The translations under genes were made by a program, and so were the position numbers. Under the pieces are notes generated by a model, which did not search any database, was not told the DNA's origin, and saw only the letters and a list, made by a program, of their open reading frames with translations. Below are positions 12,653 through 21,618 of a stretch of 64,000 nucleotides of DNA, in pieces (position 1 is the first letter of the stretch; each line of letters begins with the position of its first letter). This DNA comes from Collinsella ihumii (GTDB lineage Bacteria > Actinomycetota > Coriobacteriia > Coriobacteriales > Coriobacteriaceae), in contig NZ_FCOU01000009.1 of the NCBI RefSeq assembly GCF_900046475.1, positions 186,001 through 250,000 on the forward strand. Direction: 5' to 3'.

Positions 12653-12761
12653 TGAGTATTCGTCCGCAGAGAAGCCACTAAATATTGCCAACTGGAGCCG
12701 GGGGTATTGCGCGTGAGAGCCGGGCGCGGTGCCGCAGGGAGCCGCGCCCGGCATCAGCTCG

Positions 12762-13509
12762 TCAGCCGGATCCGCTGCCGAGCTTCCTCCTCATGTTGAG
12801 CTCGCCCATCTCGACCCACGCGGTGCCGTGCACGATGCGGTCCATGATCGCGTCGGCGTGCACGCCGCCCCCGAGCCGCGCGTGCCAGTCCTTCTGCCTG
12901 AACTGGGTGCAGAGAACCGTCGAGCACGAGCCGTAGCCCGCCTCCATGAGCTCGAGCAGGAAGCCCCGGAACAGCTCGCCGGGGCGGTCGAGCAGCCACT
13001 CGTCCAGCACGAGCACCTGGAAGGCGGCGTACTTGCGGGTGAGCTTGCGCTCGCCGCCCGTTCGCTCGCGCGCCTCGCGCCACGCCTCCTCGAGGTCGGG
13101 GCAGCGTATGTAGCAGGCGCGCATCCGTCGCTGGCAGGCGGCCTTCGCGAGCGCGCAGGCCAGGTAGGTCTTCCCCGTGCCCGTCGGCCCCTGGAGCACG
13201 ACGTTCTGGCCGCGCTCGGCGAACCCGCAGGTCGAAAGCTCGGTGACGAGCAGCCGGTCGAGCCCGCGCTCCTCCGAGAAGTCTATGGAGCGCACGTCCG
13301 CCTCGGGATAGCGCAGGCCCGCGCGCTTGGTGAGGTTGCGCACCTTGGACGTCAAGAAGGACGAGGGGGTCGTCGTTCATGATCTGCTCGCCGCAGTCGG
13401 CGCAGGTCATGCCCATGCACATGCCCTCGTCCTGCGCCGCGAAGGCGTCGAGCAGGTCGGATGCGCCCATGTCGCGCAGCTTGCGCCTGGTCTCCACGGA
13501 GAGGTCCAT
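12762..13509 (-). pseudogene. istB: IstB-like transposition helper ATPase, frameshifted
   Basis: AAA+ helper of IS21 transposases. The ATG at 13507-13509 gives MDLSVETRRKLRDMG and the usual helical N-terminus. After about residue 35 the frame enters a block identical in sense to IleS (TCADCGEQIMNDD). The rest of IstB (TSKVRNLTKRAG, Walker A GPTGTGKT, LVLDEW and QFRQKDWHARLGGG to the stop) continues in the +1 frame. So the gene is broken near 13363-13376 as written. Either the copy is dead, a programmed shift is used, or the assembly is wrong here. Confidence 0.75.
13363..13407 (-). other. ileS-identical block inside istB
   Basis: 45 bp matching 2919-2963 of ileS at 43 of 45 positions, in the same strand sense and the same codon frame (TCADCG(E)IMNDD). 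istB loses its frame at the downstream edge of this block. Confidence 0.85.
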
Positions 13510-13554
13510 CTCCCTACACCTCCCCGTAGAAGTCCGCGCCCCGGACGTATCCGG

Positions 13555-13609
13555 CTCGTCCACGCGGTCGGCCGTACCCGGGGCGCAGGTGAGCGACGTG
13601 TCCTGGTTG
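13555..13609 (-). other. ftsH-identical block inside istA
   Basis: 55 bp matching 8726-8780 of ftsH at 54 of 55 positions, same strand sense and same codon frame (NQDTSLTCAPGTA). The istA frame changes immediately after it. Confidence 0.88.
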
Positions 13610-14577
13610 CTCCTGAGTATCGGCTCCACATCCCGGTAGCGCGGTGAGCGCCTCCCCGTCGCCAGCGCCATCTCGCACGCCCTCTCGAGCCGCGGGGCGG
13701 AGTACTTGTGCGAGAGCCTCAGCACCGCGAGCGCGGCGTTGAACCCCTGCTCCTCGAACTCCACGGACTGGAATATCCGCTCGACGACGCCGGCGCACGA
13801 CGGGCCGACCCTCTCCGCCCAGCGCCGGATTCGCCCGGCGTCCCAGTCCGAGTACGACCCCCCGTCCGGCAGGTCGGCCTCGTGCGTCGAGTACCTGTTG
13901 CGCGCGTATGCCGGGAACAGCGGGTGGGTCGCGAGCCGCTCTCCGCCCAGGAAGACCTCGACGGTGGACTCAGTGACGCGCAGGTCGACCGTCCTGCCGA
14001 CGGCGAGATGGGTCACCGAGTAGAAGTTGCGCTTGTACGACACGTGGCAGTTGCGCTGGACCTTGCGCCCGTACACCCACTCGCAGACCTCGTAGGGGAC
14101 GGCCGGCAGCGGCCTCAGGAGCGGGCGTTCCTGCTCCTCGAAGACCTGCCTCCGCGTGCCCTCCCGTTTGGAGAAGGGGCGGGAGTTGTGCTCGTCGACC
14201 TTCTTCCTGACGGCCTCCTTGAGCGCGCCGAAGTCCGTGAAGACCGTTTCGCGCAGCGCCGCTATCACCTCGGTGGCCGCCTGCCACACCTCGTTCTCCA
14301 CGCTGGGCTTGTCGCGCGGCCTCCTCACGCGCGCGGGCATCACCGCCGCCCCGTAATGGGCTGCCATCTCCCGGTATGCGTCGTTGATGACGACCTCGCC
14401 CTCGCGGGGATGGCGCTTGACGCCCGTCTTGAGGTTGTCCGGCACGATGCAGGGAGCCGCGCCGCCGAAGTAGCCGAATGCGTGCACGTGGCAGCGAAGC
14501 CATGTATCCTGCTTCATGTCGAGCGTCGGCTCGACCCACGACATGCGGCTGAAGGGCAGGCAGGCCACGAACAGGTA

Positions 14578-14617
14578 GAACTCGGAGATCTTGGACGTCG
14601 CCGCGTCGACTGCCGCC
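14578..14617 (-). other. smc-identical block inside istA
   Basis: 40 bp identical to 26712-26751 of smc, same strand sense and same frame (VDAATSKISEF). It lies just after the catalytic Asp of IstA and keeps the istA frame open. Confidence 0.88.
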
Positions 14618-15229
14618 ATCGTCGGCCCGGCCCAGTCGACCTCCATGATCCTTCCCGCCTTGTGCCCGACGCGGCTCACGACGCTTTTCCTCACGGTGAA
14701 CTCGCGGTAGCGCTTGCAGAAGCGGTCGTAACCCATCGACGCCTCGCCCCTCGCGGAGCACGCGTCCCGGTACTCGGCGTGCAGGCGCTTGAGCGTCACC
14801 CCGTCGCGGGCGAGCTCCCTGTGGATGCGCCCCCAGTCGGGATCGGGGTAGACGGTGGCCTCGTGCGCCCTCTCGGGGAAAAGGCGGTCGTAGACCTCGC
14901 GGTCCGAGAGCGGGCGGGCGTCCTCCCACCCGAAGCCCTCCCGCTTGGCCGCGGCGAGCACCGCGGTCACGCTGTTGCGCGACACGCCGAGGGACGCTGC
15001 GATGGTGCGCCCCGACAGCCCGGACCCGTCGAGCCTCAAGATGTCCTTGGCCCTGATTCTATTCGCCATGCTGAAAACCTCCTTCGTCTTGACTCCGACA
15101 TGGCAAGACGAAGGTAGCAGCAGGCGGCTCCCTTGCGAAATATCGATGGCTCTCTATGCCAATATCTGACGTTGGCCACCAGCGGCTCCCATTCGCAATA
15201 TCGCATGCTCTGAAGCGGGCGATTACTCA

Positions 15230-16710: not shown

Positions 16711-17424
16711 TTAGTACGGTCGCTTTTTGTCCAGCCAGCCTTGCTCTGCCCAATATTTGCCGTCGAGGTATTCGGGATCAGCTTTATGTAAGGACTTTTG
16801 CATTTTACGACAGAAAGAAAACTTAAGTTTTGTAATCAAATTTGTATGTGCAGGTTTGGTATAGTCGATGCGTGAAAATTCCCGTGAAAGCTTTTCTATC
16901 TTTTTTGTCAGTTCCGTTTGCTTCTTTTGGGAAAGCTTATCCCAGATAATATTACCCATTAAAGCTCCGGTAAAAATACCGATTTTAGAAATGCCCCACC
17001 AAGATAAGCTGTGCTTTATATCTTTTGCCGCAGATTTTGCACCGGCACCTAAACACTGTGTAATGATGACCGCACGTTTCCCGAACATTTCAGGAGCAGG
17101 GCGGTGCGGCAGCCAGCGGTAAGCAAAATGGTCGAGGAGATTTTTAATTGCGCCGGTTGCGTGAAACACATAAGCAGGAGAGGTCATTACAATTAAGTCT
17201 GCTTCCAAGAGCGATCTATCAATTCTTTCGATGTATTCTGCGTCTTTACAAGCCTTTTCGCCCTTTAAGATGCAGTTTGTGCAGCCGACACAGAAATTGG
17301 GGCAATCCTTTGGGAGATAGTATTCCGTAATGTTTGCCTTATTTTTAAACTCCGCTAAAAACATCTCTTTCAAGCGGTAGGTTACACCTCGTTTTTCCGT
17401 TGCGTTTATAACCGTTATTTTCAT
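16711..17424 (-). CDS. NAD(P)H-dependent flavin oxidoreductase (flavodoxin-like fold)
   Basis: FMN reductase-like protein, 237 residues from the ATG at 17422-17424. It opens MKITVINATEKRGVTYRL, then has a CVGCTNCILKGEKAC cysteine cluster (about residues 45-59) and the TSPAYVFHATGAIKNLLD block of the family. The closely spaced cysteines are typical of iron-sulfur flavoprotein-like members, though a full cluster motif is not certain. The start overlaps the stop of the upstream TetR gene (ATGA), so they form a two-gene operon. Low-GC, Firmicutes-like. Confidence 0.85.
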   Translation of the reverse strand: MKITVINATEKRGVTYRLKEMFLAEFKNKANITEYYLPKDCPNFCVGCTNCILKGEKACKDAEYIERIDRSLLEADLIVMTSPAYVFHATGAIKNLLDHFAYRWLPHRPAPEMFGKRAVIITQCLGAGAKSAAKDIKHSLSWWGISKIGIFTGALMGNIIWDKLSQKKQTELTKKIEKLSREFSRIDYTKPAHTNLITKLKFSFCRKMQKSLHKADPEYLDGKYWAEQGWLDKKRPY

Positions 17425-17999
17425 TCTGATACCTCCAAAATATCGTGCAGAATTTGCGTGTGCCACGCCTTGCGGTTTTCCTTTTTACTTAAATCAATAT
17501 CAAGTATTGTCGAGGTCGTTTCATACCGAAGAAATGTCTGCTGCATAACCGAAATCAAGCAAAAAGTCTTTCTTTTTACGGTGCTTTCGTCCCAATCAGG
17601 ACGGCAGGCAGCGACAAGAGGAAGATATGCGGCATAAGTTCTGTGTGTGTTATCATTTGGTTTTGGATTTTTCATATCGGTAAGCACCGATATTTTTGAA
17701 ACGGCATAATGCTCAAATAAAAAGTCAAGAGTCATATTGCCGAGATATTCCAGTTTTTCAAAAGGTGGTAAGTCCTTTGTCTTTTCTCGAATACTCTGAA
17801 AGTTCTCGACAATTCCGTTTATAATGCGCTCGACGCATAGTTCAATCAGGTTATCCTTGTTTCCAAAATGATAATTGACAAGCCCTAATCCAACGCCTGC
17901 TCTTTTGCATATCTCACGGACTGTAACTTCTTCTAAATGTTCCCCTTTTTCCTCAATGAGTTTAATCGTTGCCTGTATGATTGCTTCTTTATTATCCAC
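17421..17999 (-). CDS. TetR-family regulator (second)
   Basis: 192 residues. I choose the GTG at 17997-17999 because AGGAGG lies 5 nt upstream; an ATG 21 bp earlier has no ribosome site. Helix-turn-helix at about 18-50 (VREICKRAGVGLGLVNYHFGNK), then a ligand domain. It sits behind a near-consensus promoter with two palindromic sites and overlaps the oxidoreductase it probably controls. Confidence 0.9.
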   Translation of the reverse strand: MDNKEAIIQATIKLIEEKGEHLEEVTVREICKRAGVGLGLVNYHFGNKDNLIELCVERIINGIVENFQSIREKTKDLPPFEKLEYLGNMTLDFLFEHYAVSKISVLTDMKNPKPNDNTHRTYAAYLPLVAACRPDWDESTVKRKTFCLISVMQQTFLRYETTSTILDIDLSKKENRKAWHTQILHDILEVSE

Positions 18000-18013
18000 A
18001 CTATACCTCCTAT

Positions 18014-18059
18014 TGAACACTGTTCAGTAACATTATACTGAACGCAGTTCAAAAGTCAA
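18014..18059 (-). promoter_or_regulatory. Promoter with two TetR-type operators
   Basis: Minus strand: -35 TTGACT (18054-18059), 16-bp spacer, -10 TATAAT (18032-18037). Two 13-bp palindromes of the form TGAAC-N3-GTTCA lie at 18014-18026 and 18039-18051, centres 25 bp apart. The second fills the spacer and the first covers the start region, ideal for repression by the adjacent TetR protein. Confidence 0.85.
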
Positions 18060-18656: not shown

Positions 18657-19568
18657 TTAGGCGAACATCCCGGGTCGGTAATGATAGCCGTTGTCCGCAT
18701 GGGGGCAGAGCTGCCAAAAGGCCACCGCGCTCGCCGCGGCGACGTTCAAAGAATCAACGCCGTGCGCCATGGGGATGCGGATCGTGAGGTCCGACCCGTC
18801 GATCGTCTTCGCCTGCAGGCCGGCCCCTTCCGTCCCCATAAACAGCGCAAGACGGGGAATCCCAAGCAGCGCCGGATCGTCGAGCGAGACGGAATCGTCC
18901 TCGAGCGCCATCGAGGCGCAGGTGAATCCGGCCTCGCGCAGCTCGCGCAGGCCGTCATGAGGCCAGAAGCGCGCCTCCGTGCCGATGCGGCACCACGGCA
19001 CTTGGAACACGGTGCCCATGCTCACGCGCACCGCACGGCGGTACAGAGGATCGCAGCACGTGGGGCTCACGAGGATGCCGTCGACGTTCAGCGCCGCCGC
19101 GCTGCGGAAGATCGCACCGACGTTCGTATGGTCGACGATGCCCTCGAGCACGCAGACGCGCACCGGACGTTCCTGTGCGCGCTCGACAAGTCCGCGCAGG
19201 AAATCGGGGGCAGCGGCAAGGCGCGGGCGGCGAAACGCCGCCAGGGCCCCACGCGTCACGGTGAAGCCGGTCAGCTGCTCCATGAGCTCCATCGAGCCGA
19301 CGAATACCGGGATATCCCCCGTCCACGCCTCCGCGACGCGCTCAAGCAAAGGCATGAGCTGGTCGAGCCAGCGCTCTCCCATAAGGAAACTCACCGGCTC
19401 GAGCCCCGCATCGACCGCGCGCTCGATGACCTTGGCGCTCTCGGCGATGAAGATGCCCTTCTCCGGCTCGAGCACGGACCTCAGCTCGCGCTCCGTCAGG
19501 CGCGTGTAGGCCGAAAGGCGCTCGTCGTCAAGCGAGTCGATAAGGATGATCTGCGGTGCCATACCCAT
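18657..19568 (-). CDS. TrmH/SpoU-family RNA 2'-O-methyltransferase
   Basis: 303 residues, methylates ribose in tRNA or rRNA using SAM through a trefoil-knot fold. The three SpoU motifs are present: NVGAIFRSA near residue 170, LFMGTEGAGL near 250, and IPMAHGVDSLNVAAASAV near 275. An N-terminal substrate-binding extension (residues 1-150) makes it resemble TsnR/RlmB-like members. It is third in a tight minus-strand series after thyA and the DHFR-flavodoxin gene (4-nt gap). Confidence 0.9.
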   Translation of the reverse strand: MGMAPQIILIDSLDDERLSAYTRLTERELRSVLEPEKGIFIAESAKVIERAVDAGLEPVSFLMGERWLDQLMPLLERVAEAWTGDIPVFVGSMELMEQLTGFTVTRGALAAFRRPRLAAAPDFLRGLVERAQERPVRVCVLEGIVDHTNVGAIFRSAAALNVDGILVSPTCCDPLYRRAVRVSMGTVFQVPWCRIGTEARFWPHDGLRELREAGFTCASMALEDDSVSLDDPALLGIPRLALFMGTEGAGLQAKTIDGSDLTIRIPMAHGVDSLNVAAASAVAFWQLCPHADNGYHYRPGMFA

Positions 19569-19572
19569 GGGC

Positions 19573-20760
19573 TCACTGCTTCTTCTTGCGGCCGAACAGG
19601 TGGCGCCCGGTGTTCTTGAGCTTATCCATCATGGTCGGGTCGGGATGCTCGGCCTCCCATGCGGCACGGCGACGGCGCTTCTCGTACTCGTTGATCAAGG
19701 GGTCGCCGTAACCCTGAACCAGGTTGTCGTACCACGCGATCATATCGGCGATGTCCTCGTCGTTGGGGCGGCCCTTGTTCATGCCGCCCATCAGCTTGTA
19801 GGGACCCCACGTGTCGAAGCCGGGACACCCGTGCCCCGCGAGGAAGTTGGCGTGCGTCGCACGGCAGATGCCGTCGATATCCTTGCCGTACCACTTGCTC
19901 GCACCGCCGTAGGTGAGCAGGCTGAACACGAAGTCGCCTGTACCGACGGAGGCCTGCATGACGCGCGCGAGGTCTTTGTCGATCTCACCCATGTAGATAC
20001 CGCTCGCGATGCCGATCAGATGATACGGGGACAGGTCGACCTTGGGATTCTTCTTGTCGACGGTCGCGACGTCCAGCGTATCGATCTCGCCGGGAAACGC
20101 CTTCGCGAGCGCGTCGACGACCTTCTTCGTGTTGCCGTGGTGCTTGGAGCGGTACAGGATCATCGTCCTGATCTGGGGCCGTTTAGGGGATTCGGTCGCC
20201 TGCTGGCCATCGGATGCGGGCTCTGCGTCCTCTTTCTCGTCGGTCGCGGCGGGACGACGATAGGTCACGAACCGGTATTCGATGCCATGGTCCTCCTCGT
20301 CGGCCCCGATGAGGGCGGGTTCGGATTCCGATACGACTTCCCAGGCGTCATCTTCATCGAGATTCGGGAAGTGCGTATCGGCCAGGCGCAGGCAATGGGT
20401 GCGGGTCACCTCGGCGACCGTGCAGAACGGAAGCAGCTGGCGGTAGACCTCTTCCCCGCCGATGACCCAGGCCTCGTCCTCGTCTGCGATCGCATCCAGA
20501 GCCTCGTCGACGCTATGGACGACCTCCACGCCTTCGCGCTCGAACGATGCGTCCCGCGTCAGCACGATGTTGCGGCGGTTCTTCAGCGGGCGGCCGCCCG
20601 GGAAGCTGTCGAGGGTCCTGCGGCCCATGATCACCGTATGGCCGGTCGTCAGCTCGACGAAGCGGCGCATGTCGGCCTTGTTGGAAACGATCATGTCCCC
20701 CTCGTAACCGATGCCCCAGTCGTCACTCACGGCAACGATAGCGGAAAGCTTGCAGCTCAT
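19573..20760 (-). CDS. folA: Dihydrofolate reductase-flavodoxin fusion protein
   Basis: Residues 1-170 are a DHFR: WGIGYEGDMIVSNKADMRRF supplies the substrate acidic residue region, then GHTVIMGRRTLDSFPGGRPLKNR and WVIGGEEVYRQLLP bind NADPH. A charged linker (about 171-198) leads to a flavodoxin-like domain beginning MILYRSKHHGNTKKVVDAL (FMN phosphate loop) and running to residue about 340, with a basic tail. One uninterrupted frame covers both. DHFR regenerates tetrahydrofolate from the dihydrofolate made by ThyA, whose gene is 10 bp upstream. An internal start at the Met of MILYRS is possible but has no clear ribosome site that I can point to. Confidence 0.9.
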   Translation of the reverse strand: MSCKLSAIVAVSDDWGIGYEGDMIVSNKADMRRFVELTTGHTVIMGRRTLDSFPGGRPLKNRRNIVLTRDASFEREGVEVVHSVDEALDAIADEDEAWVIGGEEVYRQLLPFCTVAEVTRTHCLRLADTHFPNLDEDDAWEVVSESEPALIGADEEDHGIEYRFVTYRRPAATDEKEDAEPASDGQQATESPKRPQIRTMILYRSKHHGNTKKVVDALAKAFPGEIDTLDVATVDKKNPKVDLSPYHLIGIASGIYMGEIDKDLARVMQASVGTGDFVFSLLTYGGASKWYGKDIDGICRATHANFLAGHGCPGFDTWGPYKLMGGMNKGRPNDEDIADMIAWYDNLVQGYGDPLINEYEKRRRRAAWEAEHPDPTMMDKLKNTGRHLFGRKKKQ

Positions 20761-20769
20761 GGATGCTCC

Positions 20770-21618
20770 TTAGATTGCGATGGGAATGTTCTTGATCTGA
20801 GGGCCGTGCTCATAGCCCTCGACGATCAGGTCATCGGTCGTGAAGTCGTAGAAATCGCGAACCTCGGGGTTGAGGCTCACCTTGGGCGCGGGGTGCTGCG
20901 GCCGCGCGATGAGCTCGCGGATGATGTCGACATGGCGGTCGTAGATATGCGCGTCGACGATCACGTGGAGCAGCTCGCCCGCGACCATATCCGAAACCTG
21001 CGCCACCATCATGAGCAGGATCGCGTACTGGCACACGTTCCAGTTGTTTGCGGCGAGGATGTCCTGGCTGCGCTGCATGAGGACCATGTTGAGCACGGGC
21101 TTGTCGTAGCCCGGCTCATGCGTGACGTTATACGTCACGCTGTAGGCGCACGGGTACAGGTGCATCTCGGACAGGTCGGCGAACGTGTACATGTTGGTCA
21201 TGATGCGACGGGAGAAGGGCGTGTGCTTCAGGTCGTAAAGCACGCGGTCCATCTGGTCGAAGTCGCCTTCGGGATAATGGGACTTCTGCGCGATCTGATA
21301 GCCGTATGCCTTGCCGATGGACCCGGTCTCGTCGGCCCATTCATCCCAGATATGGGAGTTGAGATCATGGATGTTGTTCGACTTGCGCTGGTAGATCCAA
21401 AGGATCTCGTCCATCGCGGACTTGAGCGCCGTGCGGCGCAGCGTCAGCGCGGGAAACTCCTCGCGCAGGTCGTACCGGTTCGTGACGCCGAACGATTTGA
21501 TGGTGTACGCAGGCGTTCCGTCCTCCCAATGCGGCCTGACCTTCTCGCCTTCCGTCGTGGTGCCGCGCTCCAGAATATCCGAGCACATGGAAACGAACAG
21601 TTCATCGGCTTTGCTCAT
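20770..21618 (-). CDS. thyA: Thymidylate synthase ThyA (phage phi3T/Bacillus-like type)
   Basis: Converts dUMP to dTMP with methylene-tetrahydrofolate. 282 residues. The catalytic Cys is in LYPCAYSVTYNV, and QRSQDILAANNWNVCQYA with HVIVDAHIYDRH follow. The NNWNV form, in place of the common GLPFNI, resembles the B. subtilis/phage phi3T ThyA group. The ATG has AGGAG upstream. It heads the operon thyA-DHFR/flavodoxin-trmH-like. Confidence 0.95.
   Translation of the reverse strand: MSKADELFVSMCSDILERGTTTEGEKVRPHWEDGTPAYTIKSFGVTNRYDLREEFPALTLRRTALKSAMDEILWIYQRKSNNIHDLNSHIWDEWADETGSIGKAYGYQIAQKSHYPEGDFDQMDRVLYDLKHTPFSRRIMTNMYTFADLSEMHLYPCAYSVTYNVTHEPGYDKPVLNMVLMQRSQDILAANNWNVCQYAILLMMVAQVSDMVAGELLHVIVDAHIYDRHVDIIRELIARPQHPAPKVSLNPEVRDFYDFTTDDLIVEGYEHGPQIKNIPIAI

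What the first reader, a model, noticed from the sequence alone, without database searches (positions are those of the whole stretch)
19573..20760. Dihydrofolate reductase fused to a flavodoxin-like domain
One frame encodes a full DHFR, a charged linker and a flavodoxin-like domain, next to thyA. DHFR normally uses only NADPH; the fusion suggests an alternative or regulated electron supply, or a second flavin-linked activity in dTMP synthesis of an anaerobe.
Basis: partly seen in the sequence, partly recalled or inferred. Interest (0 to 1): 0.66.

Follow-up and report, generated by a model that had tools for sequence, protein, structure and literature searches.

The report
Collinsella DHFR fused to a flavodoxin
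In some gut bacteria of the genus Collinsella, the gene for the folate enzyme DHFR and the flavodoxin-type gene next to it have merged into one protein, at least twice independently; the DHFR half still looks like an ordinary NADPH enzyme, so the flavodoxin is more likely a tethered second protein than a new electron source.

Summary
Window 19573-20760 (-) is one 395-codon frame: complete DHFR (Pfam PF00186, residues 5-169), a 27-residue acidic linker, and a flavodoxin domain (PF12724), inside a tight thyA-dfrA/fld-spoU group. The same stop-free fusion is in 10 of 43 genomes of the genus. Of 65 family genomes, 11 more have the two genes adjacent but separate (overlapping by 4 nt in three junctions read), 26 have the flavodoxin gene elsewhere, 17 have DHFR without it, 1 has neither. 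Fused copies form two clades and a single origin is rejected (p 0.011; p 1e-5 on the flavodoxin). The fused DHFR is the only DHFR in all 10 genomes, none has ThyX, and its folate and NADPH residues match those of unfused relatives. The flavodoxin keeps its FMN loop and is under purifying selection; its nearest solved relative is FldH, without FldH's heme cap. The linker is variable and predicted disordered. Best reading: repeated fusion of coupled operon neighbours, giving a normal NADPH-DHFR tethered to an FMN protein with its own, unidentified reaction. The proposed alternative electron supply to DHFR has no support. Scored as a new variant of a known kind.

The parts
20770..21618 (-). thyA, thymidylate synthase (282 aa), first gene of the conserved group
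   Evidence: Pfam PF00303, 282.7 bits, residues 8-277; found directly before DHFR in the DHFR-holding loci
19573..20760 (-). whole fusion ORF, 395 aa: DHFR - linker - flavodoxin
   Evidence: one open frame with ATG start; same architecture in 10 of 43 genus genomes
20254..20748 (-). DHFR domain, residues 5-169
   Evidence: PF00186; the same span given by PF00186 in the whole genome, G000:C9:206254-206748; DHFR fold, TM (target) 0.80-0.89 to solved DHFRs
20173..20253 (-). acidic, alanine/proline-rich linker, 27 residues (170-196)
   Evidence: length 21-66 aa in 10 fused proteins, clade A identity mean 0.29; pLDDT < 50 at 173-187
19576..20172 (-). flavodoxin domain plus C-terminal helical extension, residues 197-395
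   Evidence: PF12724; flavodoxin fold, Z 17.1 to FldH 8g64 and 16.6 to a Desulfovibrio flavodoxin
19576..19698 (-). basic helical C-terminal extension (about residues 355-395), end of a long helix plus a short helix, absent from most clostridial homologues (mostly about 145-160 residues)
   Evidence: DSSP on model, helices 138-175 and 181-194 of the domain; lengths
18657..19568 (-). SpoU-family RNA methyltransferase gene, last gene of the conserved group
   Evidence: PF00588, 101.8 bits; follows DHFR or flavodoxin in the DHFR-holding family loci (not in L077 and L078, of another family)

Best explanation
An in-frame fusion of two neighbouring genes, dfrA and fld, of a thyA-dfrA-fld-spoU group. 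It arose at least twice inside one genus (Collinsella). Shown: dfrA-fld adjacency is found in several genera of the family while fusion is confined to one, and in three junctions read from two other genera the two genes overlap by 4 nt; both domains stay under purifying selection; the DHFR half is the cell's only DHFR and keeps the standard folate and NADPH residues; the flavodoxin half keeps the FMN phosphate loop and, in a model, the fold. Inferred: the group is co-transcribed; DHFR reduces dihydrofolate from ThyA with NADPH as usual, while the flavodoxin binds FMN and performs its own electron- or hydride-transfer reaction with partners not identified here. The flexible acidic linker merely tethers the two and fixes them at 1:1, extending the translational coupling suggested by the overlaps in relatives. 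No electron flow between the domains is required or indicated.
For: Fusion in 10 of 43 genus genomes; of 65 family genomes 10 fused, 11 adjacent, 26 flavodoxin elsewhere, 17 DHFR only, 1 neither. 4-nt overlaps in L180, L181 and L184. Two clades, AU p 0.0114 (ThyA+DHFR+SpoU) and 1.04e-5 (flavodoxin) against one clade. Only DHFR in 10 of 10, ThyX in 0 of 10. DHFR active-site residues unchanged in 30 of 30. FMN-loop S9, H11, H12, G13, N14, T15 and T87 in 44 of 44 flavodoxin rows. Clade A median dN/dS 0.19 DHFR, 0.20 flavodoxin. Variable disordered linker. Ancestral start codon lost in 9 of 10 fused.
Against: Two independent fusions plus overlapping genes in other genera may mean that the two activities belong together, more than mere coupling. 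The flavodoxin's reaction is unknown, so 'own reaction' is a default. No expression, FMN-content or activity data. In clade A, E. coli position G97 of DHFR, next to the NADPH-binding glycines, is E, D or A in 8 of 8, against G in 17 of 20 unfused, so some adaptation of DHFR after fusion cannot be excluded.
Confidence: 0.7

Rival explanations
1. Functional coupling: the FMN domain acts on the folate/pterin pool (for example reducing oxidised pterins or folic acid, or protecting reduced folates), so both domains serve one pathway.
For: Conserved adjacency in several genera, 4-nt gene overlaps, and two independent fusions. Precedent: a flavin-dependent dihydropteroate reductase fused to dihydropteroate synthase is cited in PMC1971073 (passages). 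The nearest solved relative FldH is a hydride-transferring FMN protein (PMC10404700, abstract and passages).
Against: Flavodoxin unlinked in 26 of 65 and absent in 17 of 65 family genomes that have DHFR; none of 40 more distant loci (L119-L158) shows DHFR or thyA in the stretch held; no recurrent folate neighbour among 35 same-strand neighbours scanned.
Confidence: 0.17
2. One reading: the flavodoxin supplies or regulates electrons for DHFR in place of NADPH.
For: Covalent tether and anaerobic life style only.
Against: NADPH and folate residues fully retained in fused DHFRs; same DHFR without flavodoxin in 17 of 65 genomes; variable disordered linker. DHFR works by hydride transfer from NADPH, and no flavin-driven FolA-type DHFR is known to me (recalled).
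Confidence: 0.04
3. The two domains are also made separately, from an internal start or by cleavage in the linker.
For: A Met codon stands at the second Met position (TMILY/TMIMY) in 9 of 10 fused genes; predicted anti-Shine-Dalgarno pairing there is -4.0 to -5.4 in 3 of 10, overlapping values of unfused fld starts. The long disordered linker could be cut.
Against: Ancestral start codon replaced by ATC, GTC or CTC in 9 of 10 (GTG in one); pairing at both sites is weak in the window (-1.1 and -1.5) against medians of -7.9 for thyA and -7.7 for dfrA in fused genomes. Other start codons inside the linker were not scored.
Confidence: 0.07
4. Assembly or sequencing artefact joining two genes.
For: None found.
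Against: Ten genomes, isolates and metagenome assemblies, two clades, no stops, purifying selection.
Confidence: 0.01

Closest known systems
Bacterial FolA-type dihydrofolate reductase (PF00186; E. coli FolA)
   Same: Fold, the folate and NADPH residues listed, genomic place beside thyA
   Different: C-terminal flavodoxin fusion; W22 replaced by V, I or C in 30 of 30 family and outgroup DHFRs, fused or not
FldH/HmuF flavodoxins of Fusobacterium nucleatum (PDB 8g64)
   Same: Best solved match by profile (E 6.7e-6) and by structure (Z 17.1, tied within 1 with Desulfovibrio flavodoxins); FMN phosphate loop and ribityl-contacting Asn and Thr align
   Different: No 35-residue helical heme cap and no histidine between domain residues 118 and 136 of the window protein; one-residue longer loop S-K-H-H-G-N-T; basic helical C-terminus; fused to DHFR
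BilS flavodoxins and BilR with a flavodoxin-like domain (bilirubin reductase)
   Same: Flavodoxin beside or fused to a reductase (PMC10769871, passages); weak BilS model hit
   Different: BilS score 19 bits against a cut-off of 155; partner there is an Old Yellow Enzyme
DHFR-thymidylate synthase of protists and plants (recalled; also abstract of PMC5464667 in the listing); dihydropteroate synthase fused to a flavin-dependent reductase (PMC1971073)
   Same: Folate-pathway gene fusions; the second brings a flavin
   Different: Other partner domains; here FolA-type DHFR is kept intact and joined to a flavodoxin
Clostridial HHGNT flavodoxins (unfused, mostly about 145-160 aa)
   Same: 35-43% identity and invariant loop motifs
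   Different: Stand-alone, not near DHFR or thyA, mostly no C-terminal extension

Membership tests
Dihydrofolate reductase (PF00186) | Curated Pfam score reached over the full domain | tested here: met
   144.2 bits, cut-off 25, profile 2-159 of 159
Dihydrofolate reductase (PF00186) | Folate and NADPH residues (E. coli D27, R57, T113; R44, T46, G95, G96) | tested here: met
   identical in 30 of 30 compared, including the window; roles of the residues recalled
Dihydrofolate reductase (PF00186) | NADPH-dependent reduction of dihydrofolate | not testable with these tools
   needs enzyme assay
Flavodoxin superfamily (PF12724 Flavodoxin_5) | Curated Pfam score | tested here: met
   36.1 bits, cut-off 27; 21 of 21 members of A1 match at E up to 1
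Flavodoxin superfamily (PF12724 Flavodoxin_5) | Flavodoxin fold with FMN phosphate loop | tested here: met
   Z 15.3-17.1 in the 50 rows shown, solved flavodoxins and flavodoxin domains; S9, G13, N14, T15 in 44 of 44
Flavodoxin superfamily (PF12724 Flavodoxin_5) | FMN binding and redox cycling | not testable with these tools
   prediction only
HmuF/FldH heme-binding flavodoxins | Helical cap with heme-ligating histidine (His134 in FldH) | tested here: not met
   window residues 118-136 of the domain form a short loop with one short helix and no His; feature as described in PMC10404700, which itself lists homologues without His134
BilS | NCBIfam NF045594 cut-off 155 bits | tested here: not met
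   19 bits
HemG-type protoporphyrinogen dehydrogenase | NCBIfam NF008316 cut-off 142 bits | tested here: not met
   21.2 bits

The most novel reading that the evidence does not exclude
The repeated fusion reflects a real partnership: an FMN hydride-transfer domain tethered to the only DHFR of an anaerobe works on the same pterin/folate pool, for example returning oxidised pterins or folates that NADPH-DHFR handles poorly, making a two-cofactor folate reductase.
Probability: 0.15. Interest if true: 0.7.

Novelty: new variant of a known kind. Interest (0 to 1): 0.42.

Why it matters
It is a natural, twice-evolved fusion of a textbook drug-target enzyme with a predicted FMN protein, with living intermediates (separate, overlapping, adjacent, fused) in one bacterial family. 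That makes it a compact case of how operon neighbours become one protein, and gives a handle on an uncharacterised flavodoxin family of gut anaerobes. If the flavin domain touched folates it would be a new kind of folate reductase.

Tried and rejected
Internal start for the flavodoxin: scored at two sites only; unlikely but not excluded in 3 of 10 fused genes. Mobile or phage origin: a viral scan gave 7 pattern matches and no relative; 0 of 956 plasmid records with a match cover 80% of the query. HemG, BilS and heme-FldH identities: rejected on scores or on the missing cap. Context of the unlinked flavodoxin gene: PTS EIIA-man, M20 peptidase, aldolase or PfkB neighbours, nothing redox-related (20 stretches scanned; several had no Pfam hit and may be wrong-strand frames, and one, L109:7700-9000, was an arbitrary stretch). 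Context of distant homologues: 35 of 75 neighbour ORFs (same strand, close by) scanned; no family matched in more than 3 (two of the singletons or pairs are flavin enzymes, nitroreductase and FMN_red). Domain-domain geometry: not obtained; only pLDDT and pTM (0.60) were returned, no inter-domain error. Profile A1 against the PDB gave only weak hits; the wider profile A3 was better. Absence of other families from the structure list proves nothing. Print: no paper found with 'dihydrofolate reductase' + 'flavodoxin domain' or with Collinsella + dihydrofolate reductase + flavodoxin in the held library; one search listed 12 papers with at least 4 of 5 related terms, seen as listing only. Not searched: other DHFR-flavodoxin fusions outside the order by architecture.

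Full report
Observation. Window 19573-20760 on the minus strand is one 395-codon ORF. Residues 5-169 are a complete DHFR (PF00186, 144.2 bits against a cut-off of 25) and residues 200-265 hit Flavodoxin_5 (PF12724, 36.1 bits against 27). thyA (PF00303) lies 9 nt upstream and a SpoU-type RNA methyltransferase gene starts 4 nt downstream. The window's genome has 2.84 Mb in 35 contigs.

Distribution. Of 43 genomes of the genus, 10 carry a full-length, stop-free fusion. Over the family (65 genomes; tallied): 10 fused, 11 with dfrA and fld adjacent but separate, 26 with fld elsewhere, 17 with DHFR but no close fld match, 1 with neither. Named fused records include C. tanakaei strains An368, An791, ET10 and ET30, Candidatus C. 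stercoripullorum, C. vaginalis and several metagenome bins. In a class-wide sample 47 of 296 genomes matched the flavodoxin profile at E up to 1e-8. The six of these outside the family match over a shorter stretch; four of the six loci were read and none showed DHFR or thyA.

How it arose. In the genera g22 and g25 of the family the fld start overlaps the dfrA stop by 4 nt in the three junctions read (L180, L181, L184). In the other adjacent cases read, the gap is about 33 to 160 nt, or longer where another ORF lies between (C. phocaeensis). In a tree of ThyA+DHFR+SpoU (29 rows) and in a tree of the flavodoxin (26 rows) the fused copies fall into two groups, eight and two, and strongly supported branches force at least two changes. 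Holding all fused copies as one clade is rejected with p 0.0114 and p 1.04e-5. Deep forks of the species tree are weakly supported, so the ancestral state is inferred from adjacency in several genera rather than proven.

Internal start. Seven of seven adjacent fld genes begin with ATG at the same place. Of seven unlinked ones examined, three have ATG there, and four have another codon there and probably begin a few codons upstream. In the fused genes that codon is ATC, GTC or CTC in 9 of 10 and GTG in one. Predicted pairing with the 16S tail is weak in the window (-1.1 and -1.5 at the two candidate sites) against medians of -7.9 (thyA) and -7.7 (dfrA) in fused genomes; in 3 of 10 fused genes it reaches values seen at unfused fld starts. 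Separate translation is therefore unlikely, not excluded.

The DHFR half. It is the only PF00186 match in 10 of 10 fused genomes, and none of the 10 has a ThyX match, so it must recycle dihydrofolate from ThyA (inference). Against E. coli FolA, D27, F31, G43, R44, T46, L54, R57, G95, G96, Y100 and T113 are the same in 30 of 30 DHFRs, fused and unfused alike. W22 is replaced in all 30, so that is a family trait. Among the positions tabulated, only 97 differs with fusion: E, D or A in the 8 clade A proteins, G in both clade B proteins and in 17 of 20 unfused. The predicted structure matches solved DHFRs; its loop at residues 11-25 is of low confidence.

The flavodoxin half. A model of the domain (mean pLDDT 92.6) matches the heme- and FMN-binding FldH of Fusobacterium (Z 17.1) and Desulfovibrio flavodoxins (about 16.5). 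By sequence profile the best solved hit is again FldH (E 6.7e-6). In that alignment FldH's FMN-binding Ser9, Asn13, Thr14 and Thr80, named in PMC10404700, stand over S9, N14, T15 and T87, which are invariant in 44 of 44 rows. The FldH heme cap is not there: the region is short and, in the window protein, has no histidine. BilS, HemG and EFR1 models give only sub-threshold scores. Family members in Coriobacteriaceae add a basic helical C-terminus that most clostridial homologues lack. FMN binding is predicted, not shown.

Linker and selection. The linker is 21 to 66 aa, acidic and low in complexity in 10 of 10 fused proteins; mean pairwise identity in seven of the eight clade A linkers is 0.29 (the eighth, L064, is identical to L062); pLDDT is under 50 at 173-187. 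Median dN/dS in clade A (7 of 8 genomes, 21 pairs) is 0.055 for thyA, 0.19 for DHFR, 0.20 for the flavodoxin and 0.11 for spoU, so both halves are kept.

Mechanism. Most likely the protein is a normal NADPH-dependent DHFR with a flexibly tethered FMN protein, the end point of a coupled gene pair. The flavodoxin's substrate is unknown: in unlinked species it sits near unrelated genes, and its distant relatives have no consistent neighbour. A shared role in the folate/pterin pool remains possible because the pairing recurs across genera and was fused twice; I put it near 0.15. Precedents for flavins in folate reduction (PMC1971073, passages) and for flavodoxins fused to reductases (PMC10769871, passages) exist, but neither is this arrangement.

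Novelty. I found no description of a DHFR-flavodoxin fusion in the held library, which does not cover most subscription journals. It is a new combination of two known families, filed as a new variant of a known kind.

Noticed in passing
window 16711-17466 (-) and 17421-18020 (-): NADPH-dependent FMN reductase-like gene (PF03358) whose longest frame overlaps a TetR-family regulator gene; a second flavodoxin-fold protein close by.
   Followed up: partly
L041 (C. phocaeensis), between dfrA and fld: A small ORF, looking like a glyoxalase-type protein (by eye, not searched), lies between dfrA and fld.
   Followed up: no
DHFR residue corresponding to E. coli W22, whole family: Trp22 is V, I or C in 30 of 30 DHFRs, including two outgroup DHFRs; possible effect on inhibitor or folate binding.
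   Followed up: no
   Followed up: yes
loci L119-L158: A widespread HHGNT flavodoxin family of anaerobes with an invariant lysine and proline in a K-x-[HR]-P motif and no characterised member known to me.
   Followed up: partly
window 12754-15069 (-): Large transposase-like ORF with Mu-transpos_C_2 and integrase core matches.
   Followed up: no
genome G264 (same family): No DHFR match at E <= 0.001 although rated 95% complete.
   Followed up: no
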